This document shows positions 38,261-54,467 of a stretch of DNA of 64,000 nt, in pieces. Location of the stretch: contig QBVU01000002.1 in assembly GCA_003284275.1 (NCBI GenBank), positions 1 to 64,000 on the forward strand. Reading direction: 5' to 3'. Position 1 is the stretch's first letter. Every line of letters starts with the position of its first letter. The notes beneath the pieces were generated by a model, which did no database searches, was not told the origin of the DNA, and saw nothing but the letters and a program-made list of their open reading frames with translations. This DNA comes from Pelagibacteraceae bacterium AG-313-A04 (GTDB taxonomy: Bacteria > Pseudomonadota > Alphaproteobacteria > Pelagibacterales > Pelagibacteraceae). Position numbers and translations under genes: made by a program.

Positions 38261-38282
38261 ATAGATGTACGAGGTTTGTTCT

Positions 38283-38957
38283 ATGCTTACAAAAAAACAA
38301 AAAAACTTACTAATATTCATAAATAAGAAGATTAGATCTTCTGGAATTTCTCCATCATATGAGGAGATGAAAAATTCACTCAACCTTAAGTCGAAATCAG
38401 GAATTCATAGATTAATATCAGCTTTAGAAGAACGAGGATTTGTTAAAAGATTAGCTCACAAAGCAAGAGCTTTAGAAGTTGTTAAATTGCCAGAAAATGC
38501 AAGTGCTAATGATATTTTTAATACTTTTACACCTAGTGTTATCAAAGGTGGATTAGATAAAGAAAACACAAAATCAACTGATGTATCTGTTTTAGGAAGT
38601 ATTGCAGCTGGAACTCCTATTGAGGCAATTCAACAAGAAGTTGATCGAGTGGCTTTACCTGAAGATTTACAGAATAATGGTGAACATTATGGATTAAAAG
38701 TTAAAGGTGACTCAATGATTGAAGCCGGTATCAACGATGGTGATACGGTAATCGTTAAGAAAACCTCAAATGTAGATAGTGGTCAGATTGCGGTTGTTTT
38801 AATTGATGACCAAGAAGCAACTTTAAAAAGAGTTAGAAAAAAAGGAAACACTATTGCTCTAGAAGCTGCAAATAGAAACTACGGTACAAAAATCTACGCC
38901 GCAAACAGAATTAAAATTCAAGGTAAACTTGTTTCTTTATATAGAAACTTTCACTAA
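38283..38957 (+). CDS. lexA: LexA repressor
   Basis: [17 protein letters not shown] wHTH start and Ser/Lys autoprotease region ([21 protein letters not shown]); start moved from 38265. Confidence 0.95.
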
Positions 38958-38976: not shown

Positions 38977-40371
38977 ATGTCTTTTAATTGTAGGTTTGCG
39001 CCCTCTCCTACTGGGCCTCTTCATATTGGTGGTGTTCGAACAGCTTTATTTAATTGGTTATTAGCTAAGAAAAATAAAGGTAAATATTTTTTAAGAATTG
39101 AAGATACAGATAAAGAAAGATCAAAAGACGAATTTAAAAAACAAATTATTACATCATTATCATGGCTAGGGATTGTTCATGATGGTGAAGAATATATTCA
39201 ATCTAAAAATATTAATAAACACGTTGCAGTAGCTGAAGAATTAATAAAAAAAGGCTTTGCTTATGAATGTTATTGTTCTGAGGAAGAGATAAATGAGCAA
39301 AAAGATAAGTGTAAAAAACAAGGTATACCGTATGTTTACAATAGAAAGTGGAGAGATGCTAAAGACCTTAAAATTCCAGAAGGTGTAAAGCCTGTAATTA
39401 GATTTAAGAGTAAAATTTCAGGAAATACAATCATAAAAGATTTAGTTCAAGGAGAAAGAAACATCTCAAATTCTACAATTGAAGATTTTGTAATTTTGAG
39501 AAAAGATAAATCACCAACATATCAATTATCAGCAACAGTGGATGACCATGAGATGAAAATAACTCACGTAATAAGAGGTGATGATCATATGATTAATTCT
39601 TTTAAACAAAAGCAAATTTATGATGCCATGGGTTGGGAAGTTCCAAATTTTGCTCACATTCCATTAATTCATAGTGAACAAGGGAAAAAATTATCAAAAA
39701 GAGATAACGCCTCTACTCTTGAAGATTATGTTAAAATTGGAGTCATTTCAGATGCACTAAGAAATTATTTATTAAGATTAGGATGGTCTTATAAAGATAA
39801 AGAGATTTTTACTAAGCAAGAAAGTATTGATTTATTTGATCTAAGTGGAGTTGGAAAATCACCCTCAAAGCTAGATATGAATAGAATTTATTCAATAAAT
39901 GAAACTTACATAAAAACAATAGATGAAAAAGATCTTTTTAATTTCTTCAAAGAATACGTCTCGAAATACAAAAAACCTATAGAGCAAGCAAAAGAGGATA
40001 TACTTTTAAAATCAATGGGTTTCTTAAAAAATAAAGCGAAAACTTTAGAAGATATTTGGAATAATGCTCAATATATAATTAATGATAAAATTGAAATTAG
40101 TGCAGATGATAAAAAATTAATTGATGATTTATCTAAGAAAGTAATTAGTGATTTTACCTCTGACTATGAAAAACTTCCCTCTTTATCGAGAGAAACATTA
40201 GAACCTGTAATTAAATCTCTAATTGATAAACATAAGACCAACTTTAAGGGTGTAGGTCAGCCTCTAAGAATAGCACTAGTGGGTTCAAGATTTGGGCCGG
40301 GTCTATATGATGTGATTTTATCTTTAGATAAATCAGAAGTTACAAAAAGATTAAAAAAAATTTTACAATAA
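38977..40371 (+). CDS. gltX: Glutamyl-tRNA synthetase
   Basis: RFAPSPTGPLHIGGVRTALFNWL (HIGH), GKKLSKRDN (KMSKS). Confidence 0.97.
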   Translation: MSFNCRFAPSPTGPLHIGGVRTALFNWLLAKKNKGKYFLRIEDTDKERSKDEFKKQIITSLSWLGIVHDGEEYIQSKNINKHVAVAEELIKKGFAYECYCSEEEINEQKDKCKKQGIPYVYNRKWRDAKDLKIPEGVKPVIRFKSKISGNTIIKDLVQGERNISNSTIEDFVILRKDKSPTYQLSATVDDHEMKITHVIRGDDHMINSFKQKQIYDAMGWEVPNFAHIPLIHSEQGKKLSKRDNASTLEDYVKIGVISDALRNYLLRLGWSYKDKEIFTKQESIDLFDLSGVGKSPSKLDMNRIYSINETYIKTIDEKDLFNFFKEYVSKYKKPIEQAKEDILLKSMGFLKNKAKTLEDIWNNAQYIINDKIEISADDKKLIDDLSKKVISDFTSDYEKLPSLSRETLEPVIKSLIDKHKTNFKGVGQPLRIALVGSRFGPGLYDVILSLDKSEVTKRLKKILQ

Positions 40372-40384
40372 AATATAATTAAAT

Positions 40385-41671
40385 ATGCGATTCTCTTTTT
40401 TAGATCTTTTCTCGGGGATAGGTGGATTTAGAATACCATTAGAAAAAAACGGAGGAATTTGTAAAGGTCACTCAGAGATAGATAAAAATTGTTTAAAAAT
40501 TTACGATGAAAATTTTAAAACAAATGGATCTTACCTTGGAGATATAACAAAGCTCAAAGAACCCCCAAAAGTAGATTTGGTGGTAGGTGGAGTTCCTTGT
40601 CAAGCTTGGTCTGTTGCAGGGTCTAAAAAAGGTTTTGATGATCCACGTGGTAAACTTTGGATGGATTGTTTCAAAGTAATTAAAAAATCTAAACCAAAAG
40701 CTTTTATGTTTGAGAATGTAAAAGGTCTCTATGATAATAGAAATAAAAGTTCTCTTAATCTAATTTTAGATGAATTTAAAAAATGTGGTTATGACGTTTT
40801 CCATAAACTTTTAAACTCATATGACTTTGGTTTGCCACAAAACAGAGACCGATTATTTATAGTAGGAATTCAAAAAAAATTTAATGCAAATTTTTATTTT
40901 CCGTCTCCGGTAAAAGACGTAACTCCGCTATACAAAATATTTCATGATATAAAATATAAAGAGAGTTTTTTTAATAAGAAAAAATTTTTACCAAGAGATT
41001 TATTTGGTGAGAGAATTCCAGTTTCTAGAAATAGATTTCAAAGACCAGATGAATTAAATGATTTTTTTATATTTTGTGATACAAGAAACGGGCATTCAAC
41101 TATTCACTCTTGGGAGTTACTCAAAACATCGAAAAGAGAAAAAGAGATTTGTTTAAAAATATTAAAAAATAGAAGAAAAAAAGAATTTGGTGAATGGGAT
41201 GGAAATCCAATATCTTATAAAAATTTGAAAAAACTTATTCCAAAACTTAAAGAAACTGAATTAAAAAAATTAGTTAAAAAAAACATTCTTCTTCAGGAAG
41301 AAGATAAAAGATATGAACTTGCTCACACTAAAAACTCTGCCGGAATTTTTGGAGTGTATCGAGTTTTTTTACCTCAATCAGAGGTGTTCGCTACGATAAC
41401 TGCAACGGAAAACAGAGACTTTATCGCTACTGAATATATAAACGGAAAAAATAAGGATAAATATAAAGAAAATTTTATTAATAATATTTATGCAAAAAAG
41501 AAATTCAGAATGATTTCTGGGAGAGAGTCAGCAAGATTACAAGGTTTTCCAGAGAATTTTAAAATACATGAGAATGATAAGGTAGCTAAACGTCAGTTTG
41601 GTAATGCTGTGCCAACAAATGTAGTAGGTGCAGTGATAAAAGAAATCTTAAAAACTAATATTTTAAACTAA
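40385..41671 (+). CDS. DNA (cytosine-5) methyltransferase
   Basis: Motif I FLDLFSGIGGFR, IV GGVPCQAWSVAG, VI MFENVKGL, VIII QNRDRLFIVG, X RQFGNAVP. Confidence 0.95.
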   Translation: MRFSFLDLFSGIGGFRIPLEKNGGICKGHSEIDKNCLKIYDENFKTNGSYLGDITKLKEPPKVDLVVGGVPCQAWSVAGSKKGFDDPRGKLWMDCFKVIKKSKPKAFMFENVKGLYDNRNKSSLNLILDEFKKCGYDVFHKLLNSYDFGLPQNRDRLFIVGIQKKFNANFYFPSPVKDVTPLYKIFHDIKYKESFFNKKKFLPRDLFGERIPVSRNRFQRPDELNDFFIFCDTRNGHSTIHSWELLKTSKREKEICLKILKNRRKKEFGEWDGNPISYKNLKKLIPKLKETELKKLVKKNILLQEEDKRYELAHTKNSAGIFGVYRVFLPQSEVFATITATENRDFIATEYINGKNKDKYKENFINNIYAKKKFRMISGRESARLQGFPENFKIHENDKVAKRQFGNAVPTNVVGAVIKEILKTNILN

Positions 41672-42486
41672 TTTTTAAAATTGTTTATTAATGTATCAAG
41701 CTCACTGTACATTGAACCATCTTCTTTAATTTCGTTTATTACCTCTTTAAAAATCTTCATAGCATTTGGATTTCCGGTTATAAATTTCCAATAATCGTTG
41801 TCCACAAGATAGTCTTGATTTTTGATTAAAGGGGATATTCTGCCTTTTTCAGCTTTTTCATAAGGTATATCAAAAGGGTTATAAGGAATGCAAACAAGCG
41901 CTTTGACTTTAGACTTATAATTCCAAAAGAGATGGTGTTGATATTGTCTCATTAATTTTTTGCTAAAATCATTACCATTCCCTGCATTTATATGGGGTGA
42001 TTTAAGCTCTAAAAGATAATTTTTGGTTTTCTTTTTTAGCCAAATGTCTACTCCATCACCCTTACGAACTTTTGCTTTTTGAACTTTTTTAAACTCTTTT
42101 TGTTTTTTTTTAATTTCTTTTTTTAACTCCCTAATATACCCATTCATAGATACTCTTATTCCATCGGCTCTTTTAGAATGCCATTTGTCAATTAGGAAGT
42201 CTAAATCTTTTGTCTTAGGTCTTGAGTTTTGAAATATCTTTTTATCACAAATCTCGAATGAATTTTGTTTTGCAAGATCTACCGTTAATTTTTCCCATAA
42301 TTTTTGTCCTAAACTAGTTTGTAATGATTGGATAATTGTAGCTATTAATCTTTCATTCGGAGCAATTTGATCCAAAAGGATATGAGAGGTATCAATTCCT
42401 TTTTTTAATTTATTTTCTTTCCATGAATTGAATGAGTCTATAAAGATATTTTTGACTATTTTTTTTATTTTTTCGTCGGAAACCAT
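41668..42486 (-). CDS. Type II restriction endonuclease, TdeIII-like family
   Basis: IAPNERLIATIIQSLQTSLGQKLWEKLTVDLAKQNSFEI; PD-(D/E)xK-like DGVDIWLKKKTKNYLLELKSP; convergent with C5 MTase. Confidence 0.75.
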   Translation of the reverse strand: MVSDEKIKKIVKNIFIDSFNSWKENKLKKGIDTSHILLDQIAPNERLIATIIQSLQTSLGQKLWEKLTVDLAKQNSFEICDKKIFQNSRPKTKDLDFLIDKWHSKRADGIRVSMNGYIRELKKEIKKKQKEFKKVQKAKVRKGDGVDIWLKKKTKNYLLELKSPHINAGNGNDFSKKLMRQYQHHLFWNYKSKVKALVCIPYNPFDIPYEKAEKGRISPLIKNQDYLVDNDYWKFITGNPNAMKIFKEVINEIKEDGSMYSELDTLINNFKN

Positions 42487-42505
42487 AAATCTATTCTATA
42501 AAACA

Positions 42506-42808
42506 TTACTGGATTGTGAAATATTTCATTAGTTCTTTTTTGTGATCTTTATAAATTCTGAGGATAATTCTATTATAGTATTTAATTGAATTATTTTCCC
42601 ATAATGCCAAATCTTTTGTAGCTTCTCCATGAATCTCCTGAACTCTATCTTGCAAAAACTGATCTTTGTAATACCAGTCCCCTCCTAAACCTAATATTAA
42701 AAGACGCTTATTATCTTCCTCCCACTTTTCCCATTTTTTTTCATTTTGTTTAATTAAAGTTTCAGTCTCATTTTCACTGATAAATTGTTCAATTTCTCTT
42801 TTTTTCAT
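42506..42808 (-). CDS. Hypothetical protein in helicase/nuclease operon
   Basis: 100-aa ORF whose start overlaps the helicase stop (TAATG). Confidence 0.6.
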   Translation of the reverse strand: MKKREIEQFISENETETLIKQNEKKWEKWEEDNKRLLILGLGGDWYYKDQFLQDRVQEIHGEATKDLALWENNSIKYYNRIILRIYKDHKKELMKYFTIQ

Positions 42809-44334
42809 TATATAAACGTAGATATTCTACTTCTTATTTCTTTAATTGTTGTTTTAAAAATTCTAGCAAGTGCTGCTTCTGGAAGATTTTTTTTAAACAG
42901 CATTTTTAATTTTTTGTCTTTATCATCAGTCCAATCAATTTTCTTATTAATTAAAATCGGTTTTTTTTCAATTTTAATAGGTGCTAAATTCTCTTTAACA
43001 TACTTATTTCTTTTAATAATTTCTTTAATATATTTTTTTTCAAGTTTTTTTCCTAAAAAATCAAAAACCTTCTTATTAAAGATTAAATCTTTTTGCTGAA
43101 TCGGTTGAAATAAAGTAATCCCCTCTATAGATTTAGCTCTACTTAAAGCTACATATGTCTGACCATGTGCAAATGACCCTGTGTCTAGGTCAATAGCTAC
43201 CTTGTCAAACGTTTGTCCTTGGCATTTATGAATTGTTGCAGCCCAAGCTAATTTCAACGGGTACTGAATAAATGTTGCTACTGGTATGGGATTTATCTTA
43301 TTTCCTTTTAATCTATAATTTACCTTTTCCCATTTAACTTTACCTAAATAATAAACTCGATTATTAATCTTGATTTTAATTTTTTCACCTTCTAAAGACT
43401 CTATAATTCCTAAAGTTCCATTTACCCATTTTTGAGGAGTAGAAGTATCGTTTTTTGTTATCATGACCTGAGCACCTACTTTCAAATATAAGATTTTAGC
43501 CACTGGGTATTCATTTTCTTGGAAAGATCCTGAAATTGAAGCATTAAATTCGTATACTTCTCCGGGTAACTCATTTAAACGTTCATTATTAATTGAGTCA
43601 ACTTTTTTATTTCTTGGCGCAAGTATAATTGTTCCTTTCTCCAACTCTTCTTTATTTGTGATAATCCTTTTATTCAAAAAAGATAATTCTTTGTCGTTTA
43701 TTTTTGCAATCCTGATTTTATTTAGCAAATCAATAAAATTTTTTTCTTTCTGTCTAAATATTTTACTTAATTCATGTGTTACGAATTCACCAAGAGGAAA
43801 GCTTTTTGAATTAAAGAAAAATTCTCCCTTAGGATAAAATTTTTCCATCACTTCTTCATCAATTGAGGAAACAACAGGTGGAAGTTGTAATAAATCACCA
43901 AAAAGAATTATTTGAACACCTCCAAAGGGCTTTTTATTTCCTCTATTTTTCTTCAATGATAAGTCTATTGCGTCAAATATATCAGCTCTTAACATTGAGC
44001 TTTCATCAATTAAGAGCGTTTCTAATCTTTGAATATGTTCTCTCTCTCTTAAAACTTTTACATCATCCTTAGAAATAAACCTTGGAGGAAATTTAAAAAA
44101 AGAGTGAACAGTCTGACCTCTCGCTTTGATAGCTGTAATACCGGTAGGAGCTAAAATAGCTATATTTTTTTTTGTATTCTTTCTTATATATTCAATTAGT
44201 GTTGATTTTCCTGAGCCTGCTTTACCTGTTATAAATAAATTTTTTTTAGATTTTTCAACCAAATCAAATAAATCTTTAAATTCAGAAGTAAACTCAAAAT
44301 TTTCTGGTAAATTTGTTCCAGTATCTAATTTCAT
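42808..44334 (-). CDS. PIF1/RecD-like superfamily 1 DNA helicase with C-terminal HTH-like tail
   Basis: ITGKAGSGKSTLIEYI, LLIDESSMLRADIFD, WAATIHKCQGQTFDKVAIDL, TYVALSRAKSIEGITLF; tail WTDDKDKKLKMLFKKNLPEAALARIFKTTIKEIRSRI. Confidence 0.88.
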   Translation of the reverse strand: MKLDTGTNLPENFEFTSEFKDLFDLVEKSKKNLFITGKAGSGKSTLIEYIRKNTKKNIAILAPTGITAIKARGQTVHSFFKFPPRFISKDDVKVLREREHIQRLETLLIDESSMLRADIFDAIDLSLKKNRGNKKPFGGVQIILFGDLLQLPPVVSSIDEEVMEKFYPKGEFFFNSKSFPLGEFVTHELSKIFRQKEKNFIDLLNKIRIAKINDKELSFLNKRIITNKEELEKGTIILAPRNKKVDSINNERLNELPGEVYEFNASISGSFQENEYPVAKILYLKVGAQVMITKNDTSTPQKWVNGTLGIIESLEGEKIKIKINNRVYYLGKVKWEKVNYRLKGNKINPIPVATFIQYPLKLAWAATIHKCQGQTFDKVAIDLDTGSFAHGQTYVALSRAKSIEGITLFQPIQQKDLIFNKKVFDFLGKKLEKKYIKEIIKRNKYVKENLAPIKIEKKPILINKKIDWTDDKDKKLKMLFKKNLPEAALARIFKTTIKEIRSRISTFI

Positions 44335-44337
44335 TAT

Positions 44338-45018
44338 TTAAAGATTGCTATTAACCTCTGTAAATTGACAGGAATTACAATCATCCGAAAAAGGTGGAAT
44401 TTTTGGATTTTCTAAAAGATCAATCAAATTCGTTATGTGGTTTTTAAAATCCTTTTCATTTCTTTGCAATTCAACAAAAGCGACATTGAATTTCATGTTG
44501 TGATCTTTTTTGGTATGATTTGTAATTTCAGAAGGTGAAAATTGTATAATGCCCATTTGTTTAATAGGAGTTAATTTTGGTGTTGGTTTAGATAATTTAC
44601 CAGGGCTAGATAAAATTTGAGCATAGCTTTCTAGTTGATATTTGTAATTTTCTGCTTTTTTTGCACTATAATTTGTTGTTTTAAAATCATAGATAGCATA
44701 TCCACCATCTTTAAGTCTAATAACAATATCGGGATTACCTGTTAATTTAAATTTTCTTTTTTTATTATCTACTAAACCTTCTGAAGTAATTTTACCAGGC
44801 AGCTCTTTACTCGTTACAAAAGACCCATCAGGAAGTCCTTCACACCAATCTTTAGTATTAATTTCTTTGTAGTATGGTTTTTGTTTAGAGTCTAAACTTG
44901 AAAAAACTCTTGGAGGGCCTTTATCACTCTTGATTGAAAATTTTTTGTTTACATAAAAGCATCTTTTACATTTTGTTTGAAAGTCTAGCTCAGATGGTGA
45001 AAACTGATATTCGGTCAT
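44338..45018 (-). CDS. PD-(D/E)xK (Cas4/RecB-like) nuclease with four candidate Fe-S cysteines
   Basis: CKRC near N-terminus, GNPDIVIRLKDGGYAIYDFKTTN core, QLESYAQIL, CNSC at C-terminus. Confidence 0.82.
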   Translation of the reverse strand: MTEYQFSPSELDFQTKCKRCFYVNKKFSIKSDKGPPRVFSSLDSKQKPYYKEINTKDWCEGLPDGSFVTSKELPGKITSEGLVDNKKRKFKLTGNPDIVIRLKDGGYAIYDFKTTNYSAKKAENYKYQLESYAQILSSPGKLSKPTPKLTPIKQMGIIQFSPSEITNHTKKDHNMKFNVAFVELQRNEKDFKNHITNLIDLLENPKIPPFSDDCNSCQFTEVNSNL

Positions 45019-45192
45019 TTAGTATATTTTAGAAACGTATCTTGCCAAGATAGGTTTGGTTAAACTTTCAGACATAATATCTATTTTACCGTTTTCGTGA
45101 TAAAAATATACCCTATAGAAATGATGACCATGCTCATGATCATGAACTTCTTCAACTCTAATTTCTTTGATTTTATCTAATTTATTCTTCAT
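45019..45192 (-). CDS. Small His-rich hypothetical protein (57 aa)
   Basis: Hand-translated: MKNKLDKIKEIRVEEVHDHEHGHHFYRVYFYHENGKIDIMSESLTKPILARYVSKIY; abuts the nuclease start and overlaps the upstream 61-aa ORF. Confidence 0.6.
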   Translation of the reverse strand: MKNKLDKIKEIRVEEVHDHEHGHHFYRVYFYHENGKIDIMSESLTKPILARYVSKIY

Positions 45193-45367
45193 CGAATAAT
45201 TTAACTACTTTCTGTTTGTTTTTTAATGCATCTATTTGAAGTTGCATTAACTCTAATTGATTTTCTAATCTTACAAGTTTTTGCTTGGTTTTGATATAGT
45301 CTGTAACGAAAAGATCGCCTTCAGATATAGATTTTTGTTTAAGTAGGTAAAAGTCTGTGGTTTTCAT
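45182..45367 (-). CDS. Small coiled-coil hypothetical protein
   Basis: 61-aa ORF preceded by AAGGAGG Shine-Dalgarno. Confidence 0.6.
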   Translation of the reverse strand: MKTTDFYLLKQKSISEGDLFVTDYIKTKQKLVRLENQLELMQLQIDALKNKQKVVKLFDEE

Positions 45368-45505
45368 AAGTTAGCCTCCTTGTTGGGTTTCAACAAACTA
45401 ATATAACTTAAGCCTAATATAAGTATTAATTTTAAATTTTCAAGATATCAATTATTTTTTATCTTCATAATTGCGTTTAATCGAATTGTTAATTATATTA
45501 TTTTT

Positions 45506-45820
45506 ATGAGTTCTTTTGATGATAGAAAAAAATCATTTGAAAAAAAATTCGCAAACGACCAAGAGTTACAATTTAAGATAACAAGTAGAAGAAATAAGTA
45601 TTTTGGCGAATGGGCGGCCGAAAAACTCAGCAAAAAAGATGAGGAAGTTGAGAACTATATTAATGAAGTTATAAGGGCTGATCTAAAAGAACCTGGCGAT
45701 ATGGATCTTATTGAAAAAGTCCAGAAAGATTTAGATAGCTTAAGTGATAAAATTTCTATAGACGAAATTAAATCCAAACTAGATGAATGCTTTGAAAAAG
45801 CTAAAAAAGATTTCTTGTAA
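45506..45820 (+). CDS. DUF1476 protein (alphaproteobacterial F1-ATPase zeta-inhibitor-like)
   Basis: MSSFDDRKKSFEKKFANDQELQFKITSRRNKYFGEWAAEKL...ADLKEPGDMDLIEKVQKDL. Confidence 0.85.
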   Translation: MSSFDDRKKSFEKKFANDQELQFKITSRRNKYFGEWAAEKLSKKDEEVENYINEVIRADLKEPGDMDLIEKVQKDLDSLSDKISIDEIKSKLDECFEKAKKDFL

Positions 45821-45822
45821 GG

Positions 45823-46716
45823 CTAGTTTGGCTTAACTAAAAAAGTTCTAAATAACAGTAACAAAAATAAAAGTGATAAAATTTGAGATAGAATACTCGT
45901 AAGAATAAAATAATTTTTTCTTATACTTTGAGTTTTCATTTCTTCAAAAATTAAAGTAAGTTCATCTTCTATTTCAACTATTTCATCATCAATTTTTTCC
46001 ATGATTTCTTCAATGATCAGTGTGTCTTCATGAATTAGCTTTAACAAAAGCATTTTATATCTATAAACATCATACCAATCTCTTGCCTCAAAATTTTTTA
46101 ATGCTTTTTGTCTATAATCAGCTAATTCGTTACTCTTATTTTTCCAATGCCTATTGTAACCAATTAATTTTTCATAAACTAATATGTTATCATTAAAAAA
46201 TAAATTATTTCCTTTATCAATTTTAATATCACTACTAAATAAATTATCTAAATTTCTAATTTCTTTGTTGTTTACTTTTTCAATTATATCTTTGTAATCT
46301 AAATAAAAATCATAATATTGGCTTCTAATTTCATCATTTAATCTAGCAACTTTGTTTAAATCTTTTAACATCATCCATTCTAGATCATCTTGATTATTTT
46401 TAATGTTTGTCCCAGAAAAAAAATCATAACCTTTGAGTTTAGCATCTGTTAGTAAACGTGTTTTGATTAAAAGATTTCTCCGAAGAAGAGTTGGTAATAC
46501 ATTTGAATAATTTGCTTGCGAGATATTTAGTAGTGAGTCTGAGAGTGCTTCATATTTAGACAAATTGTTCTCTATATTTTGAAATTTAATTTTTAAATTT
46601 CTCAATTTATCTTCAGTCCTAATTACTAATTGGTCAAAGCCGTATGAAAAGATTGTAAATATTGCAACAATAAAAATCAGAATTATAGATTTTTTATTTA
46701 ATCTTCCTCTCCTCAT
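45823..46716 (-). CDS. Hypothetical membrane protein: TM - helical extracytoplasmic domain - TM (orphan sensor-like)
   Basis: N-terminal TM, ~230-aa helical region, C-terminal TM, no output domain. Confidence 0.65.
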   Translation of the reverse strand: MRRGRLNKKSIILIFIVAIFTIFSYGFDQLVIRTEDKLRNLKIKFQNIENNLSKYEALSDSLLNISQANYSNVLPTLLRRNLLIKTRLLTDAKLKGYDFFSGTNIKNNQDDLEWMMLKDLNKVARLNDEIRSQYYDFYLDYKDIIEKVNNKEIRNLDNLFSSDIKIDKGNNLFFNDNILVYEKLIGYNRHWKNKSNELADYRQKALKNFEARDWYDVYRYKMLLLKLIHEDTLIIEEIMEKIDDEIVEIEDELTLIFEEMKTQSIRKNYFILTSILSQILSLLFLLLLFRTFLVKPN

Positions 46717-47627
46717 TTAATTTTCTTTCTAATTCTTTTTAAATTAAAATTTACTGATGAAATTTCAAAAAACTGAATAATAATGAATATCGATAGCTGT
46801 AATACAAAAGCTGATAATATTAAGTTTTTTTCTAATTTAGAAAAATATTTAATTTCATTATTTATATCTTTAAGGGCAATGTCACTATAAGTAATACTGC
46901 TACTAGTAATCAATAAAGTATATTCTATTAATTCGTAAAATTGATCTACAATTTTTTCTGCTAGTAAGAATTCTTTACTATATTCGCCTATAAATTTAAG
47001 ATTTTGTTTTTTTTTGGTTGACTCTTTTAAAGATACTAAAAGTTCATCAAATAAATCATCGTATGACCTGTTGTATAAAATATTCTCAAAAATTTTCTCT
47101 TTATCTTCAAGTTTACGTAAAATATTAAGATTTTTTTTTGTTTCCTTTACTAATTTTTTAAATTCCTCATGGTACACTGGTAAAACTTCTTTGAGATATT
47201 CTTCATCTTTTACATAAAGATCAAAAATTTCCATATATTCATCAAAGTCTTTAATTGTGTATGTAATTTCATAAAGACCAGAAGCTTGAATATCATTAGA
47301 TGATATAATTAGTTTTCCAAAATTATTAAATCTCATTAATTCTGAAAATTCTTGATTTGTTTCCTCTATATTTATCACTTGTCTTAATTCTCCAGTAACT
47401 GCGGGTATTAGCTGAATTGTTCTCTCCATTTCTCGTTTGTATTTGGACTCTTCTAAATGTAGAAATTCAAACTGACTTACTTTATTTTCTATATAAAGAG
47501 AGATAAATGCTGCACTACATGCAAATAGTGATAGAAATATTCCCACATTAATTATCAATAAGGCTCTTTTAGAATTTTTTTCCAATGCAAAATAGGTCAT
47601 TAGCATTGAAAATTTTAAAAATTTCAT
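46713..47627 (-). CDS. Hypothetical membrane protein: TM - helical extracytoplasmic domain - TM (orphan sensor-like)
   Basis: Same architecture as the downstream gene, 4-nt overlap. Confidence 0.65.
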   Translation of the reverse strand: MKFLKFSMLMTYFALEKNSKRALLIINVGIFLSLFACSAAFISLYIENKVSQFEFLHLEESKYKREMERTIQLIPAVTGELRQVINIEETNQEFSELMRFNNFGKLIISSNDIQASGLYEITYTIKDFDEYMEIFDLYVKDEEYLKEVLPVYHEEFKKLVKETKKNLNILRKLEDKEKIFENILYNRSYDDLFDELLVSLKESTKKKQNLKFIGEYSKEFLLAEKIVDQFYELIEYTLLITSSSITYSDIALKDINNEIKYFSKLEKNLILSAFVLQLSIFIIIQFFEISSVNFNLKRIRKKIK

Positions 47628-47631
47628 AAAA

Positions 47632-48420
47632 TCAATTTATTAAATTTATGAGATAATTTAAAACTAAATATATTATTAATGTACTAGTTGAAATATTAAT
47701 AAAGCTAGTTATTGAAATATTGTAATATCTTTTATTAAATATAATACTTTGCCTTTGTCTAATTTTGAGATTCTTAAAAATTAAATAAGCTCTTATCGAA
47801 AATATAAGTAGTATAAAATAAGCCACTTGATAACTTATTAGTGTGCTAGCAAAACTGAAATTATACAAGCCGTGCATACCCACAGGAATAAAAAGTGCTA
47901 AAAACAAGTTTAAATAGTTGTATTTTTTTTCAAAAATACTCTGAGAAATTAAAAATCCCATAATAATTCCGCATAACGCGTGCATTGGTATTGCTGTAAA
48001 AGCTCTCACTAATGCAATATCAAATGAAGGATTTTTCTCAAAATATAAAACGTAATCAATATTTTCATACGCTGCAAATCCTAGAGATGCTGCTATTCCA
48101 TAAATCACTCCATCCATTGGTTCGTCAAAGGCTGTTTTACGTGTACAATAAAAAATAATTACACAAGCTTTAAAAAACTCTTCAACAAAAGCTGCTCTAA
48201 TAAAATTTTGAAAAAATAAGTAAGTCTCACCTTTAAAATATTCTTTACTATAATCATCCAACAATGGAATTATTAAATCTATAGCTAAAACAGTAGCACA
48301 ACCAAAAAGAAATGTTTTAAAAACTATTCTAGGCGGCTCTGGAAATTGGTCTTGTTTGTAAGCATATAAAACTAAAACTACGGCAGGCAATATCGCAGCC
48401 AATAAGTACAAAAAGTACAT
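47632..48420 (-). CDS. PrsW family intramembrane metalloprotease
   Basis: AAFVEEFFKACVII (EExxK), GIAASLGFAAYENIDYVL, FTAIPMHALCGIIMGF, PVGMHGLYNF. Confidence 0.85.
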   Translation of the reverse strand: MYFLYLLAAILPAVVLVLYAYKQDQFPEPPRIVFKTFLFGCATVLAIDLIIPLLDDYSKEYFKGETYLFFQNFIRAAFVEEFFKACVIIFYCTRKTAFDEPMDGVIYGIAASLGFAAYENIDYVLYFEKNPSFDIALVRAFTAIPMHALCGIIMGFLISQSIFEKKYNYLNLFLALFIPVGMHGLYNFSFASTLISYQVAYFILLIFSIRAYLIFKNLKIRQRQSIIFNKRYYNISITSFINISTSTLIIYLVLNYLINLIN

Positions 48421-48421
48421 T

Positions 48422-49333
48422 TTATTTTTTTCTTCTACGTCTTTTTATTGATGGTGAGGAAGTATTCGATGAACTTTCTTTTCCACTTAAGAATTTTCCT
48501 AAAAAAGCTAATGGAGCTAATAATATCCACCAAAATTTGGCTAATTTAACAAGTATTCCAGTTTTAGCTAAAGCTTTGACACCTAATGAACCCGCAACTA
48601 AACTTCCTATTCCAACTGCCGCAATTTTGTCTCCTGGTTTATAATCAGAATGTCTAAAGCCATCTTCAAAAATAACACCATTGACAAAATCTTTTGAAAA
48701 ATCTGATTGATATTTTAAATCCATATCTTTTTGATAGCTTACAACGAATGCACTTTCTAAATAACCTTTTTTACCTAAAATTAAATTCTTAGACTCCATA
48801 GACTGTTGACCGCTATTCCAATCTACTTTGTAAGAGTAACTAACTGATTTATTTTTTTCATTTAAAGTTGGCTTAAAAATCCAATCAATTTTATTTACGT
48901 AATCTAAATTTTTATCTTTGAGATAAGTTGCATTAGATTTTGCAATTTCTCTTAATTGAGATAACAAATTCTTTGAGTCAACACTTTTCCAATCATCTAA
49001 CTTGACATAACCATCATCAATATAATCTAGGTACACATCATAACCTGTGCCTCTTATATGCATTACTACATCTTTTTCTGCTGGGAGGCCGAAAGTCCAC
49101 CAACTATACTGATTTATATCATTGAAATTATCTAAATATATTTCATCACCTAAAATAAGAACTTTAACATTTGCTTTTTTTACAAAAACATTATGTTCTT
49201 TATTATCAAGATTTTTCCAATTAAGAGTTTCAACCTTCTTAATCCACTCATCATCACTTAAAAGTTTTTTTTCTAAAGCTTGTACGTGAGTAAAAATTAA
49301 TAAAAAAAATATTATTGAAAATATTTTTTTCAG
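48422..49333 (-). CDS. DUF2167 membrane protein, translated from a non-ATG start
   Basis: Frame open upstream of the listed ATG (49063) through (M)KKIFSIIFFLLIFTHVQALEKKLLSDDEWIKKVETLNW...; full signal peptide recovered with CTG (49333) or ATT (49336) start. Confidence 0.75.
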   Translation of the reverse strand: MKKIFSIIFFLLIFTHVQALEKKLLSDDEWIKKVETLNWKNLDNKEHNVFVKKANVKVLILGDEIYLDNFNDINQYSWWTFGLPAEKDVVMHIRGTGYDVYLDYIDDGYVKLDDWKSVDSKNLLSQLREIAKSNATYLKDKNLDYVNKIDWIFKPTLNEKNKSVSYSYKVDWNSGQQSMESKNLILGKKGYLESAFVVSYQKDMDLKYQSDFSKDFVNGVIFEDGFRHSDYKPGDKIAAVGIGSLVAGSLGVKALAKTGILVKLAKFWWILLAPLAFLGKFLSGKESSSNTSSPSIKRRRRKK

Positions 49334-49606: not shown

Positions 49607-49930
49607 ATGAAAAAATTAAAAAAACAAAATTTCATAGTAAATTTATGGAACGGTAATGAGTCATTAGGAACAAGTTTTTGGGCTGTTTATATTATTGGAG
49701 GAACAATAGTAAGCCTTCCTGCGTTTATACTTCCAGAAACTAGTTATGCAATTCTCTTTTTTGTTCCTTTTCAATTTGTTTACATAGTATGGGCAATAGT
49801 TGGTACATGGAGATCTGCATCAAAGTTTAAACCTAAAAAAAAACAATGGGCTTGGGGAACTATTGCTCAAGTGTATATTGTGCTTTCTGTTTTGAGAATA
49901 TTAATCAGAGTCGCTACAAATCTTAATTAA
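49607..49930 (+). CDS. Small multi-TM hypothetical protein
   Basis: Hydrophobic segments; start moved from TTG 49601 to ATG 49607. Confidence 0.6.
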   Translation: MKKLKKQNFIVNLWNGNESLGTSFWAVYIIGGTIVSLPAFILPETSYAILFFVPFQFVYIVWAIVGTWRSASKFKPKKKQWAWGTIAQVYIVLSVLRILIRVATNLN

Positions 49931-50643
49931 TTTTTATTTTCATCATCGTTATTAGATGATTGATCATTATTTTCTGATTGAGGATCTTCTTCAGTAGTTT
50001 CTGTCGGAGTTTCCTCTTGAACTGGTTGCTCTGGTTCTGGCTGAGGTTCTAGCTCTGAATACGTCTCATCTTGAGTTGGTTCCTCTTGAGGTTCGGGAGT
50101 TGGATCTTGTTGGGATTGCTGAGCTCTAGCAATATCTGCTGCACTTTTCGGCGTTGGCTCTCTTCTCATAAAGAAATATATTCCAGCAGCGATTACAGCA
50201 ATCGCTCCTAATATATAAAGAATAATATTTAGCGCACTAATTCCTTTTTCTTCGGTTGCTTCCTCAGTTTCTTCCACAATTGGCTGAACTTCTTCTTCCT
50301 CGGGTTTGGCGTCTTGTTCTTGAACTGGTTCATTATTAACTTCTTCTTCGGGTTTAGCATCTTGTTCTTGAACTGGTTGAGCACTTACTTCTTCTTTTGG
50401 CTCTTCTTGTACCGGTTCAGGTTCTTTTGCCGGCTCAGGTTCAGGCTCAGGTTCTTTAGCCGGCTCTGGTTGTGTTTCTGGTTCTGGTTCGGCTTCGGGT
50501 TCTGGTTTTGTCTCTTGAACAACTGGAGTTGTCACCTGTGATTCTGGAGCTTTAGCTTCTTCTTTTTGACTACTAGGTTTAGGATCAATTACACCCGTAG
50601 CTACAAATACAACGCTAAAAAAAATAACAGTAATAAGATCCAT
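49927..50643 (-). CDS. Pro/Glu-rich low-complexity membrane protein
   Basis: N-terminal TM, PEPEPEPAKEPEP repeats, duplicated PVQEQDAKPEEE unit, second TM (NIILYILGAIAVIAAGIYFF), acidic tail. Confidence 0.75.
   Translation of the reverse strand: MDLITVIFFSVVFVATGVIDPKPSSQKEEAKAPESQVTTPVVQETKPEPEAEPEPETQPEPAKEPEPEPEPAKEPEPVQEEPKEEVSAQPVQEQDAKPEEEVNNEPVQEQDAKPEEEEVQPIVEETEEATEEKGISALNIILYILGAIAVIAAGIYFFMRREPTPKSAADIARAQQSQQDPTPEPQEEPTQDETYSELEPQPEPEQPVQEETPTETTEEDPQSENNDQSSNNDDENKN
50287..50390. repeat. Imperfect tandem repeat (~51-bp period, two copies) coding for PVQEQDAKPEEE
   Basis: ACTTCTTCTTCctcGGGTTTGGCGTCTTGTTCTTGAACTGGTT at 50288 and ACTTCTTCTTCGGGTTTAGCATCTTGTTCTTGAACTGGTT at 50339. 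Confidence 0.75.
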
Positions 50644-50757
50644 AACTCTAATCTAGTGTTTTATAATTAAAATTCACTCACAAATATGAACACTTTGAGT
50701 TTAGTATGTGTACAAAAAGTAGTGGAATTTGTCGATTTTTTGAAAATAAATAAATTA

Positions 50758-51216
50758 TTACTCGGGTTTAAAAATTAAACATAGGCCATTATTACAAAAT
50801 CTTTTACCTGATTCTCTAGGTCCATCATTAAAAACATGTCCGTGATGTGCTCCACATTTAGCACAATGATACTCAATTCTTTCCATTCCAAAAGAACGAT
50901 CTATTTTTGTTTTAAATGCGCCTGGTAAAGCCTCAGAAAATGACGGCCAGCCTGTGCCACTGTTAAATTTTGAGTTAGAGGCAAAAAGCTTATTCCCACA
51001 ATTAGCACAATGATAAAAACCTTTTCTTTTTTCATTTAATAAGTCACTTGTAAAAGGTCTTTCTGTCCCCTCATTAAACATGATATTTTTTTGTTCTTTA
51101 GATAAGTTAGGATTTATGATTTTTTTAGTGGCAGCAAAAATAGTTTTGAAGGGGAAAATAATCGCTATGATTGAAAGTCCTAAGATTTTGCTGAATATTC
51201 TTTTACTTAACTTCAT
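50758..51216 (-). CDS. msrB: Peptide-methionine (R)-S-oxide reductase with signal peptide
   Basis: YHCANCGNKLFASNSKFNSGTGWPSF, HCAKCGAHHGHVFNDGP, GKRFCNNGLCL. Confidence 0.93.
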   Translation of the reverse strand: MKLSKRIFSKILGLSIIAIIFPFKTIFAATKKIINPNLSKEQKNIMFNEGTERPFTSDLLNEKRKGFYHCANCGNKLFASNSKFNSGTGWPSFSEALPGAFKTKIDRSFGMERIEYHCAKCGAHHGHVFNDGPRESGKRFCNNGLCLIFKPE

Positions 51217-51241
51217 AATATTAATTTAATATATATATGAT

Positions 51242-51364
51242 ATGAAAACAATTTTCTTGTTTTTTTTAACAATTTATATTGCTTATTATCTTTTTAGACC
51301 TGTAACAAAAAAAGAGATTAAAAAATTTAACGATCCTGACAATTGGTCAAATATGGGGTTTTAA
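51242..51364 (+). CDS. Tiny membrane protein (40 aa)
   Basis: Hand-translated: MKTIFLFFLTIYIAYYLFRPVTKKEIKKFNDPDNWSNMGF; fills the gap between msrB and the HDAC-like gene. Confidence 0.45.
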   Translation: MKTIFLFFLTIYIAYYLFRPVTKKEIKKFNDPDNWSNMGF

Positions 51365-52276
51365 AGCTTTAAGGTGCTCTATGATACTCTCAGATAAAGC
51401 TTGTAAATCATAACCACCTTCTAGAAAAGAAATCACTCTTCCGTTAGAATGAGTGTTTGCTACATCCACAATATTTTTTGTTATTTTAAAAAAATCTTCT
51501 GACTCTAGATTAATATTGGCTAAGGGATCTCTTTTATGAGCATCAAAACCTGCTGAAATTAAAATCACCTCAGGTTTGAATTTATCTATGGGTTTTAGAA
51601 CTTTTTGGTCGAATATTTTTATAAATTCATTACTTCCAATACCAGCTTTTAAAGTTGCATTAAAAATATTTCCAACTCCTGTTTCATTTTCTGCCCCAGT
51701 CCCTGGAAATAAAGGAAATTCATGACATGAGCCATACGCTACAGATTGATCCTTATAAAAAATCTCTTGAGTTCCATTACCATGATGTACATCAAAATCT
51801 ATTATTGCTATTTTATTGAGACTATATTGTTTTTGTAAATATTTTGCTGCTACTGCCACATTATTAATAAAACAAAATCCATTAGCTCTTATAGTTTCTG
51901 CATGGTGACCAGGAGGTCTTACTGCACAAAATGCGATTTCATTGTTTTTCATAAGATCATTTACTGCAGCAATGCCAGCACCGCATGATCTGAGTATCGC
52001 ATTTTCACTATTTGGGCAAAGCATAGTATCAGCATAGGGTTCTTTTTCTACGCCTATAATTCCTTTTTTAGGAATATTAGAAAAAATATTTTTAATATGC
52101 TCTTTTGGATGAACTAAGGAAACAATTTCTAAGTCAACTAAAGGAGCTTCTCTAAAATTAGCTTTTAAATTAGATGATTTTATTGAATTAATAATACTAT
52201 CTAATCTTTCTTTTTTTTCGGGATGACCATTACCGTTAAATTTTTTTAAACAGTCCTCATGAGTGTAAATAATCAT
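51347..52276 (-). CDS. Histone deacetylase/acetoin utilization family deacetylase
   Basis: RPPGHHAE, IDFDVHHGNGTQEIFY, SAGFDAHKRDPL. Confidence 0.92.
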   Translation of the reverse strand: MIIYTHEDCLKKFNGNGHPEKKERLDSIINSIKSSNLKANFREAPLVDLEIVSLVHPKEHIKNIFSNIPKKGIIGVEKEPYADTMLCPNSENAILRSCGAGIAAVNDLMKNNEIAFCAVRPPGHHAETIRANGFCFINNVAVAAKYLQKQYSLNKIAIIDFDVHHGNGTQEIFYKDQSVAYGSCHEFPLFPGTGAENETGVGNIFNATLKAGIGSNEFIKIFDQKVLKPIDKFKPEVILISAGFDAHKRDPLANINLESEDFFKITKNIVDVANTHSNGRVISFLEGGYDLQALSESIIEHLKALKPHI

Positions 52277-53403
52277 AAAAAATTATTTAAGGATTCTGCT
52301 GCTAATCTTGAAGGTGAATTTTTTGTTTTGAAACCTTTTAAAATTAATTGAACACTCTTAACTTGCTCATCCATTTTTTCAGGATTATCAAGATACTGTG
52401 AAGTGCATTCAAATATTCTTTTTGGATTACAATCAGATTGTAGTAACTCTGGTATAATTTCTTTTTTTGCTGCTATATTTATAATATTTGCAAATTTTGT
52501 ATTAACCAACATTTTAACAATTAAAAAATTTATTAATCCCATTTTATATAAAATTATAGATGGTATTTTTGCATTACAAATCTCTAATGAAACTGTACCA
52601 GATTTAGCTACCGCAAAAACTGATTTTTGTAAAATATGTTTTTTTATTTTATTATCACTTATCACTTCACAATTTTTAAGATTATTTTGTTTTAGATATG
52701 ATTGAATTAAATTTGAATATTCATTTGTTGCATGAAAAACAAAAGTAAAATCATTATATTTTTTATTCATTAGTTTGATAAAATCTATTATAATCGGAGT
52801 TAGTACTATGATTTCTGATTGACGACTTCCTGCAAAAATTGAAATCAAGGCTTTATTTTTTCCTAGAATTTCATTTATATCAATTCCGCTCTCTTGCTTT
52901 TGTTCTAATAAAGGATGACCTACAAATTCATTGCTAATATTCTCTTTGTCAAAATAAGGTTTTTCAAAATCAAATAATAACAAGACATGATCTATGAATT
53001 CTTTTATCTTTTTAACTCTTTTCTCTCTCCATGCCCAAACTTGAGGCGCTACGTAATGAACAGTTTTAATTGCTTGATTATTTTTTTTTACCTTTTCTGC
53101 AACTCTTAAAGTGAAATCAGGACTATCAACTGTAAACAGTATATCGGGTTGAAAATCATTAATAGCTTTCACTGTTTCATCAATTTTTTTTTTAATCTTA
53201 AAAATATTAAATAAAACTTTCGTAAATCCCAAATAAGTTACTTCTTTAAGATCGTATATTGTTTTTATTCCTAATTTTTCTAAATTTTCTCCACCAACAG
53301 AAAGATAATTAATGTTAGGATTAATTTTTTTTAAGTTTGATATTACTTCTGAAGCCAGCTTATCTCCTGAGGCTTCTCCTGTTAGTATAAATATCTTTTT
53401 CAT
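52273..53403 (-). CDS. lpxB: Lipid-A-disaccharide synthase
   Basis: ILTGEASGDKLASEVI, HYVAPQVWAWREKRV, FAGSRQSEI, AVAKSGTVSLE; start moved from 53418. Confidence 0.94.
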   Translation of the reverse strand: MKKIFILTGEASGDKLASEVISNLKKINPNINYLSVGGENLEKLGIKTIYDLKEVTYLGFTKVLFNIFKIKKKIDETVKAINDFQPDILFTVDSPDFTLRVAEKVKKNNQAIKTVHYVAPQVWAWREKRVKKIKEFIDHVLLLFDFEKPYFDKENISNEFVGHPLLEQKQESGIDINEILGKNKALISIFAGSRQSEIIVLTPIIIDFIKLMNKKYNDFTFVFHATNEYSNLIQSYLKQNNLKNCEVISDNKIKKHILQKSVFAVAKSGTVSLEICNAKIPSIILYKMGLINFLIVKMLVNTKFANIINIAAKKEIIPELLQSDCNPKRIFECTSQYLDNPEKMDEQVKSVQLILKGFKTKNSPSRLAAESLNNFL

Positions 53404-54467
53404 TTTGAAAGTGTCCAAACAGAACCCTGGTCATTAATTAAAAAAATTCTTCCTGTATTTTCTTGAATTTCAATATCTCTTATTCTTCCAATTTTTTCTT
53501 TAAAAATTATTTCTTCATTTATAAATTTATTATTTTTAAACCTAATTTTTCTAAGAGATTGATCTCGAAGCGAAGTAATCAAAGCGTCACCGTTCCATTC
53601 TTTAAATTCCATACCTTTATATATAATCATTGAGCTGACAGCTATAGACGGCACCCAATATTTTATTGCTTTAGTAAAACCTTTTTTCCATTTTCGACCA
53701 ATCTTTGTTCCCGTATAATTTGTCCCTCCCCAACCAAGAATTTTCCAACCATAGTTTTCGGCGTACTTGGCTTCACCAAACCAATCACCGCCTTTAGCTC
53801 CGTGGTTAGTTAAATATATTTTGTTATCATATGGAGATACATCCATTCCTTGAGGATTTCTTACTCCGATTTGATAAATTTCTGGCAACCAATCTTCTTT
53901 ACCGTTAAATTTCGGGTTATCTATAGGAATACTGCCGTCTAAATGAATTTTAATTATGCTTCCAGGATGTTTTGATGGATCTTGGGCAATCATACCTTGT
54001 CCCCTCTCTCCGGCAGTTATAAAAAGAAATTTATCCTTAATAACAAGTCTAGATCCAAAATGGTAACCAGAGTTTATTGGTGGCTCAGCTCTAAAAATAT
54101 TTTTAAAATTAAGACTGTTATTATCAAAATTAGCTACGGCAACTGAAGTACTTGATTTGCCGCCTCCTCTATTTTCAGAATAAGAGACGAAAACCATTTC
54201 ATTATAAAAAAGAATTTCAAGCAATCCTCCCTGACCATCTTCCAATATATTTAAATTATGTTTTATTTTTTTAATTTTGTTTTTTTTTAAATCAACTAGT
54301 AAAATTTGACCAGATTTCTCTGTTACTAAAATTTTATTTTCTTCTGTAAAAGTTAAGCTCCAAGGGCTATTTAGTCCTGATATTATTTCTTTTAATGCAA
54401 AATCTTCTGACCTTAAATTAAAGGTTTGAATAAAAATAAGCATAAAAATAAAAAAAATCTTTTTCAT
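53400..54467 (-). CDS. PQQ-dependent sugar (aldose/sorbosone) dehydrogenase family
   Basis: Signal peptide; ISGLNSPWSLTFTE, FITAGERGQGMIAQDPSKHPGSIIKIHLDGSIP, GVRNPQGMDVSP, NHGAKGGDW. Confidence 0.87.
   Translation of the reverse strand: MKKIFFIFMLIFIQTFNLRSEDFALKEIISGLNSPWSLTFTEENKILVTEKSGQILLVDLKKNKIKKIKHNLNILEDGQGGLLEILFYNEMVFVSYSENRGGGKSSTSVAVANFDNNSLNFKNIFRAEPPINSGYHFGSRLVIKDKFLFITAGERGQGMIAQDPSKHPGSIIKIHLDGSIPIDNPKFNGKEDWLPEIYQIGVRNPQGMDVSPYDNKIYLTNHGAKGGDWFGEAKYAENYGWKILGWGGTNYTGTKIGRKWKKGFTKAIKYWVPSIAVSSMIIYKGMEFKEWNGDALITSLRDQSLRKIRFKNNKFINEEIIFKEKIGRIRDIEIQENTGRIFLINDQGSVWTLSK

What the first reader, a model, noticed from the sequence alone, without database searches (positions are those of the whole stretch)
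41668..45367. Candidate defence/DNA-processing operon: two small proteins, Cas4-like nuclease, PIF1-like helicase, 100-aa protein and restriction endonuclease
Six minus-strand ORFs with overlapping or near-abutting ends form one apparent transcription unit, with the endonuclease last and its methyltransferase convergent. Coupling of a four-Cys PD-(D/E)xK nuclease, an SF1 helicase, unknown small proteins and a Type II REase is not a standard R-M layout and could be an extended anti-phage or recombination module.
Basis: partly seen in the sequence, partly recalled or inferred. Interest (0 to 1): 0.72.

Follow-up and report, generated by a model that had tools for sequence, protein, structure and literature searches.

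The report
Swappable restriction operon in ocean SAR11
In the abundant ocean bacterium SAR11, one chromosome spot nearly always holds a Cas4-like DNA-cutting enzyme, and unrelated phage-restriction systems are swapped in beside it; this window shows one such assembly, built of a nuclease, a helicase and a restriction-modification pair.

Summary
The six-ORF minus-strand unit is real, with overlaps or gaps of at most 19 bp, and a convergent C5-methyltransferase. The exact six-gene order is unique to this genome: TdeIII-type REase in 1/327 Pelagibacterales, and p100 an orphan. The architecture does recur. The locus is the gltX-lpxB interval of Pelagibacter. All 30 gltX loci read there hold a Cas4-like PD-(D/E)xK nuclease, from mutually exclusive subfamilies (the window's is 23% identical to its sister genome's, whose gltX is 97% identical). 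Nine genomes carry the same small gene p61, usually with p57, directly upstream of the nuclease. Behind it sits nothing, or unrelated restriction modules: TdeIII+PIF1, Z1+DUF4420+C5-MTase, Mza, BglII, ResIII+MT-A70. Solo-nuclease relatives show that R-M was inserted between gltX and the nuclease. A second SAR11 hot spot behaves the same way. PIF1 is usually a solo gene, recruited here. SAR11 has no RecBCD/AddAB, so my best model is that the nuclease, helped here by PIF1, destroys DNA ends made by whatever restriction enzyme is present. Function is inferred. Cas4-like nucleases beside R-M were already known (PMC5704561). The mosaic hot spot, nuclease swapping and constant small-protein head are new as far as searched.

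The parts
38265..38957 (+). lexA, left flank of the locus (context)
   Evidence: PF00717 + PF01726; 99% identical in G218
38977..40371 (+). gltX, left border of the hot spot
   Evidence: DNA homology to G218, G054 and L093 ends at about 40350-40365
40385..41671 (+). C5-cytosine DNA methyltransferase of the R-M pair, convergent to RE
   Evidence: PF00145 E 3.6e-81; PADLOC MTase_II 2.5e-137
41668..42486 (-). TdeIII-family Type II restriction endonuclease
   Evidence: PF09520 E 1.6e-20 above cut-off; only copy in 327 Pelagibacterales; 28% to Vibrio plasmid TdeIII
42506..42808 (-). p100, orphan 100-aa protein
   Evidence: no family, no relative in viral contigs or in any fetched locus
42808..44334 (-). 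PIF1-like SF1B helicase
   Evidence: PF05970 3.4e-28, PHROG Dda-like 2.5e-76, solved Pif1 structures 1e-97 to 4e-129; solo gene in most relatives
44338..45018 (-). NUC, Cas4-like four-Cys PD-(D/E)xK nuclease
   Evidence: PF12705 3e-11, invariant Cys and DFK motif, Foldseek to Cas4/EXO5/AdnAB
45019..45192 (-). p57, small three-strand protein coupled to NUC
   Evidence: found with nucleases in many genomes; AF2 model pLDDT 86.7, three strands
45182..45367 (-). p61, small protein heading the operon (coiled-coil-like by eye)
   Evidence: 6 of 73 genus genomes, in all 6 directly upstream of the slot nuclease or its p57; conserved in L104, L111
45506..49063 (.). neighbouring variable segment: ATPase zeta-subunit gene, two unknown proteins, PrsW protease, DUF2167; not part of the restriction operon
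   Evidence: present in G007 and G102, absent from this place in G218
49927..53418 (-). right flank: w49927, SelR, histone-deacetylase-like, lpxB
   Evidence: DNA homology to G218 resumes at 49930

Best explanation
This is one state of a defence hot spot between gltX and lpxB in Pelagibacter (SAR11). A resident four-Cys, probably Fe-S, Cas4/EXO5-like exonuclease, often headed by p61 and p57, occupies the spot. Restriction systems of unrelated families are exchanged next to it, here a TdeIII-type Type II R-M pair with a recruited PIF1 helicase and an orphan protein. Proposed mechanism: the REase cuts unmethylated invading DNA; the nuclease, helped here by the PIF1 helicase, degrades the cut ends and so makes the cut irreversible, a job done elsewhere by RecBCD or AddAB, which SAR11 lacks; the host is spared by C5 methylation; p61/p57 would tether or restrain the nuclease. 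Shown: gene content, spacing, recurrence, insertion next to the nuclease, nuclease swapping, absence of AddB and of a RecB/AddA-type helicase. Inferred: nuclease and helicase activity, joint action, the role of p57/p61.
For: (1) Hot spot: all 30 gltX loci read hold a Cas4-like nuclease in the slot, 26 of them NUC3 directly after gltX. (2) Mutual exclusion: NUC3 in 0 of 23 genomes with NUC1/2/4 and in 23 of 28 others. (3) Xenologous swap: window vs G218 gltX 97%, lexA 99%, p57 81%, p61 74%, nuclease 23%. (4) R-M insertion: L093/L095 have gltX abutting NUC1 with no R-M; G054 has BglII + MT-A70 between them; the window has MT/RE/p100/PIF1 between them. (5) Constant head, variable tail: p61(-p57)-nuclease followed by Z1+DUF4420+C5MT (G218), Mza set+C5MT (G102), HNH+ResIII+MT-A70 (G013, L111), HNH+ResIII+BglII (L104), or nothing (G007, G286, G467). 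(6) NUC lies within 11 kb of a C5 MTase in 12 of 14 genomes holding both, 8 within 3 kb. (7) Second hot spot: near-identical nucleases with HsdMSR, HerA, C5MT, Mza or DUF4011-helicase cargo; DNA homology stops at the NUC stop codon and, in the L107/L110 pair, resumes beyond the cargo. (8) No AddB in 21 genomes; one UvrD-sized PF00580 protein in 12 of 14 genomes; RecBCD reported absent in SAR11 (PMC12374537). (9) NUC model resembles Fe-S exonucleases.
Against: Most Pelagibacter carry the slot nuclease with no R-M, so it has a life without restriction. Many modules already contain their own helicase or nuclease. PIF1 pairs with NUC here and in only one other locus (L109, divergent orientation). 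Defence genes cluster in islands anyway, so closeness is not cooperation. No activity is known for any member, and most genomes are incomplete MAGs or SAGs.
Confidence: 0.52

Rival explanations
1. Hitch-hiking at a permissive site: the nuclease is a housekeeping DNA-repair enzyme, in many genomes read in line after lexA-gltX, and R-M modules land next to gltX only because insertion there is harmless. No functional link.
For: 26 of 30 gltX loci carry the solo nuclease NUC3 co-directional with lexA-gltX; UmuDC, an empty site or unrelated genes occupy the spot in G103, G101, G299.
Against: The same nuclease superfamily adjoins restriction systems at a second locus and in other genera; p61-p57 lie in one operon-like run with the restriction cargo; unrelated nuclease subfamilies keep the same place, which a simple repair ortholog would not need.
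Confidence: 0.27
2. A single six-gene anti-phage system in which p61, p57, NUC, PIF1 and p100 form one complex with the TdeIII enzyme.
For: Tight spacing of all six genes; NUC-helicase neighbours recur in L109 and G218.
Against: The gene set recurs nowhere; RE and p100 are unique in the order, PIF1 is usually solo.
Confidence: 0.08
3. The p61-p57-nuclease head is an addiction or toxin-antitoxin-like element that keeps the locus in place, with p57/p61 restraining a toxic nuclease.
For: Two small proteins overlap or abut the nuclease start; the head is kept while the nuclease is exchanged.
Against: NUC1, NUC2 and NUC3 occur without p57/p61 in many genomes, so no antitoxin is needed there.
Confidence: 0.07
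4. The nuclease (with PIF1) is a recombination module that promotes exchange of cargo at the hot spot rather than defence.
For: Cargo swaps at the nuclease stop codon with conserved flanks.
Against: No integrase, recombinase or direct-repeat evidence was sought or seen; ordinary homologous recombination in the conserved flanks suffices.
Confidence: 0.06

Closest known systems
UvrD-Cas4 fusions and solo-Cas4 beside R-M (Hudaiberdiev et al. 2017, PMC5704561)
   Same: pfam12705 Cas4-like nuclease coupled to an SF1 helicase and encoded beside Type III R-M or Dcm genes; proposed ancillary role in several defence pathways
   Different: Separate genes, PIF1 (SF1B) instead of UvrD, p61/p57 head, SAR11 hot spot with exchange of both nuclease and cargo; Pelagibacter is not mentioned in that paper
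Type II restriction-modification, TdeIII family (PF09520)
   Same: REase above the family cut-off with a C5 MTase overlapping tail to tail
   Different: Joined to a nuclease-helicase operon; specificity unknown
RecBCD / AddAB / AdnAB end-processing machines
   Same: SF1 helicase plus RecB/Cas4-type nuclease; AdnAB and AddAB among the fold matches
   Different: Not members by sequence (AddB 13.9 bits against a cut-off of 486.5); separate small proteins, a PIF1-type helicase
Mza system
   Same: Occupies the same gltX slot behind p61-p57-nuclease in G102 (by Pfam domains and position); NUC also adjoins MzaB-E in L112
   Different: No Mza genes in the window
Cas4 / EXO5 Fe-S exonucleases
   Same: Fold and four conserved Cys
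   Different: Cysteines 2+2 instead of Cas4's 1+3; no CRISPR; below the Cas4 cut-off

Membership tests
Type II R-M (TdeIII) | REase above the PF09520 gathering score | tested here: met
   74.2 bits vs 27.2
Type II R-M (TdeIII) | Adjacent DNA methyltransferase | tested here: met
   PF00145 273.6 bits, genes overlap 4 bp
Type II R-M (TdeIII) | REase and MTase share one recognition site | not testable with these tools
   Needs methylome or digestion; GGNCC (site recalled from memory) is not avoided in the window, 44 vs 40 expected
Cas4 (TIGR00372) | Score above family cut-off | tested here: not met
   27.3 bits vs 65
Cas4 (TIGR00372) | Four Cys in 1+3 arrangement | tested here: not met
   2+2: C17, C20, C214, C217
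PD-(D/E)xK superfamily, PF12705 | Above gathering score, catalytic motif, fold | tested here: met
   44.2 vs 22 bits; D97 and D111-F-K113 invariant; Foldseek
Fe-S exonuclease | Bound Fe-S cluster and exonuclease activity | not testable with these tools
   Only the four invariant Cys are shown
PIF1 helicase (PF05970) | Above gathering score, helicase motifs | tested here: met
   99.2 vs 25.9 bits; solved Pif1 structures up to 4e-129
AddB / RecBCD | Family score | tested here: not met
   AddB 13.9 bits vs 486.5
UvrD-Cas4 fusion + R-M | Helicase and nuclease fused, UvrD type | tested here: not met
   Two genes; helicase is PIF1 type
Mza | MzaB-E proteins | tested here: not met
   No Mza hit for any window protein
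Any complete PADLOC system beyond R-M | All core genes match | tested here: not met
   Only MTase_II and REase_II hits plus weak Cas4 and generic helicase hits

The most novel reading that the evidence does not exclude
The four-Cys nuclease with its p61/p57 head is a general restriction-executor platform in SAR11: a constant end-destroying module on which any sequence-specific restriction system can be plugged, replacing the missing RecBCD/AddAB and itself swapped between unrelated nuclease subfamilies, perhaps to escape phage inhibitors.
Probability: 0.27. Interest if true: 0.8.

Novelty: new variant of a known kind. Interest (0 to 1): 0.6.

Why it matters
SAR11 are among the most abundant cells in the ocean and live under strong phage pressure with tiny genomes and no RecBCD/AddAB. 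A chromosomal slot where a Cas4-like nuclease stays while restriction systems rotate beside it would explain how such cells arm themselves. It would also make open questions directly testable: what finishes off restricted phage DNA when RecBCD is absent, and what solo Cas4-like nucleases in small genomes do (left open in PMC5704561).

Tried and rejected
PADLOC, NCBIfam and PHROGs gave no ready-made system for the whole unit. PIF1, p100 and p61 have no relatives in viral contigs, so a pelagiphage origin of these genes is not supported; NUC has only 20-25% matches there. PF09520 across 327 Pelagibacterales found only the window, so the TdeIII pair has no local history; the one Vibrio plasmid TdeIII locus read carries no nuclease-helicase neighbour. 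Site avoidance of GGNCC: none. Promoter and terminator scan: at chance. p57 against PDB sequences: nothing. DUF2779 protein compared with the NUC profile: no alignment, so that slot enzyme is called Cas4-like only from its D..ExK and 1+3 Cys pattern read directly. Two SAR11 papers on genome variation and recombination do not mention gltX, and a search for Pelagibacter with gltX and restriction found only an unrelated paper.

Full report
Observation. Pfam gives TdeIII-type REase, PIF1 helicase, PD-(D/E)xK nuclease and C5 MTase, all above their cut-offs; p57, p61 and p100 match no family.

Where it is. The genome is a Pelagibacter-type SAR11: 959 kb assembly, about 29% GC, and named relatives are Pelagibacteraceae single-cell genomes. 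The flanks are lexA-gltX on the left and w49927-SelR-histone deacetylase-lpxB on the right. Against G218 (gltX 97%, lexA 99%) DNA homology stops at 40354, reappears only over p57-p61 (45028-45395) and resumes for good at 49930. So the unit sits inside a variable interval.

The helicase. PIF1 relatives were found in 3 of 100 close relatives and, with a profile, in 8 of 397 Pelagibacterales including the window. In G043 and G057 it lies near rlmN and RmuC, in G336 and G298 near tgt, gyrA and recG, and in G249, G186 and G386 among ordinary genes; in G088 it follows an RNase_H_2/AAA_12 protein next to HsdS (gene names other than the Pfam-scanned ones read by eye). The helicase-nuclease pair is therefore not a conserved housekeeping pair. 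A second pairing exists in AG-447-A02: another PIF1 helicase divergent from a NUC gene, with HsdM nearby.

The nuclease and its slot. NUC relatives were found in 13 of 150 relatives and 31 of 397 in the order. All 30 gltX loci read contain a Cas4-like nuclease in the slot: 26 have a 255-aa protein, NUC3 (PF12705 E 9.6e-9), directly after gltX and co-directional; the other four are NUC1 (window, G054), a diverged NUC3 (G218) and a DUF2779 protein whose N-terminal half shows D..ExK and a Cas4-like 1+3 Cys pattern (G286). NUC2 occupies the slot alone in several more genomes. NUC3 is absent from all 23 genomes with NUC1, NUC2 or NUC4 and present in 23 of 28 others; five of the 23 come from other genera, where NUC3 may never have been present. 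Between window and G218 the neighbours are 74-99% identical but the nucleases 23%, so the enzyme has been exchanged in place. Exceptions without a nuclease are G101 (empty site), G103 (UmuDC) and G299.

Cargo. L093 and L095 have gltX abutting NUC1 with no R-M. G054 has a BglII-family REase and MT-A70 MTase inserted exactly there, and the window has MT, RE, p100 and PIF1 there. Other fillings of the slot are C5 MTase + HNH_2 + NUC4 (G227); Z1 + DUF4420 + C5 MTase behind p61-p57-nuclease (G218); the Mza set, assigned by Pfam domains and position, + C5 MTase behind p61-p57-DUF2779 (G102); HNH + ResIII + MT-A70 (G013, L111) or HNH + ResIII + BglII (L104) behind p61-p57-NUC1; and a PLD/SNF2 helicase with an Eco57I-type MTase beyond NUC3 (G413). 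p61 was found in 6 of 73 genus genomes, every time directly upstream of the slot nuclease or its p57; three of these have no restriction genes (G007, G286, G467).

Outside the gltX slot. In related genera NUC, often after p57 and a 60-70-aa protein, adjoins C5 MTases, HsdMSR, an AspBHI/Mrr enzyme, Mza, a HerA protein, a DUF4011-helicase-nuclease and a Type IIG enzyme. In 12 of 14 genomes with both genes a C5 MTase lies within 11 kb of NUC, in 8 within 3 kb. The p-values there assume independence and uniform placement, so they are only indicative. In the tree, near-identical nucleases carry five different cargos, and in one pair (L107/L110) DNA homology ends at the NUC stop codon and resumes beyond the cargo.

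Mechanism. AddB is absent from 21 SAR11 genomes while the Caulobacter control rings; 12 of 14 genomes hold a single UvrD-sized helicase of the family that would also catch RecB and AddA (G054 has a 956-aa one, the window genome none found). A paper states that RecBCD is absent from SAR11 (PMC12374537). The NUC model resembles Cas4 SSO0001, EXO5, AdnAB, DinG and AddAB, mostly Fe-S exonucleases by my own knowledge of these families. The simplest reading is that the slot nuclease is SAR11's end-processing enzyme, and that restriction systems profit from sitting beside it because an enzyme that destroys cut ends makes restriction irreversible. PIF1 (SF1B, 5'-3' by general knowledge of the family) would supply unwinding. 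None of this activity has been shown.

Known or new. Cas4-like nucleases fused to UvrD beside Type III R-M and Dcm, and solo-Cas4 beside R-M in DPANN archaea, were described in 2017 (PMC5704561). What I found in no paper searched is the SAR11 gltX hot spot, the mutual exclusion and in-place exchange of nuclease subfamilies, and the constant p61/p57 head in front of unrelated restriction tails. The paper library is open-access only, so prior description elsewhere cannot be excluded.

Limits. Most genomes are single-cell or metagenome assemblies of 60-98% completeness; absence from one genome is weak, but slots were read directly. Closeness among defence genes does not prove cooperation. Genome draws are not phylogenetically independent.

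Noticed in passing
L106-L108, L110, L112 (other Pelagibacteraceae SAGs): A second hot spot in a sister genus: near-identical NUC genes followed by HsdMSR, HerA-type, C5 MTase, Mza or DUF4011-helicase cargo, with homology ending at the NUC stop codon.
   Followed up: partly
45506-49063: The alphaproteobacterial F1-ATPase inhibitor zeta gene lies inside the variable interval with PrsW, DUF2167 and two unknown proteins; this block is present in G007 and G102 but absent from this place in G218.
   Followed up: partly
L161:6874-8512 (G103): UmuDC-like translesion polymerase genes occupy the gltX slot in place of the nuclease.
   Followed up: no
L163 (G101): gltX directly abuts lpxB: the empty site, useful as an outgroup state.
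   Followed up: no
L114:1618-2490 (Rhodospirillaceae AG-430-C17): NUC relative with an N-terminal DUF5710 domain, outside Pelagibacterales.
   Followed up: no
L029:8750-10883 and L068:2544-4929: NUC2-like nucleases lie next to ATP-dependent DNA or RNA ligase-like proteins (L029 by Pfam, L068 by similarity read by eye), a possible repair context.
   Followed up: no
L060, L061, L062, L096, L098, L102, L103: A 60-71-aa protein (ribbon-helix-helix-like by eye) precedes p57-NUC in the sister genus, followed by conserved 92-98-aa and 118-149-aa proteins of unknown function.
   Followed up: no
L179:2081-3616 and L158:9252-10778: DUF2779-type proteins (511 and 508 aa): N-terminal Cas4-like motif with 1+3 Cys plus a C-terminal DEDD-exonuclease-like domain (by eye), taking the nuclease place in the gltX slot.
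   Followed up: partly
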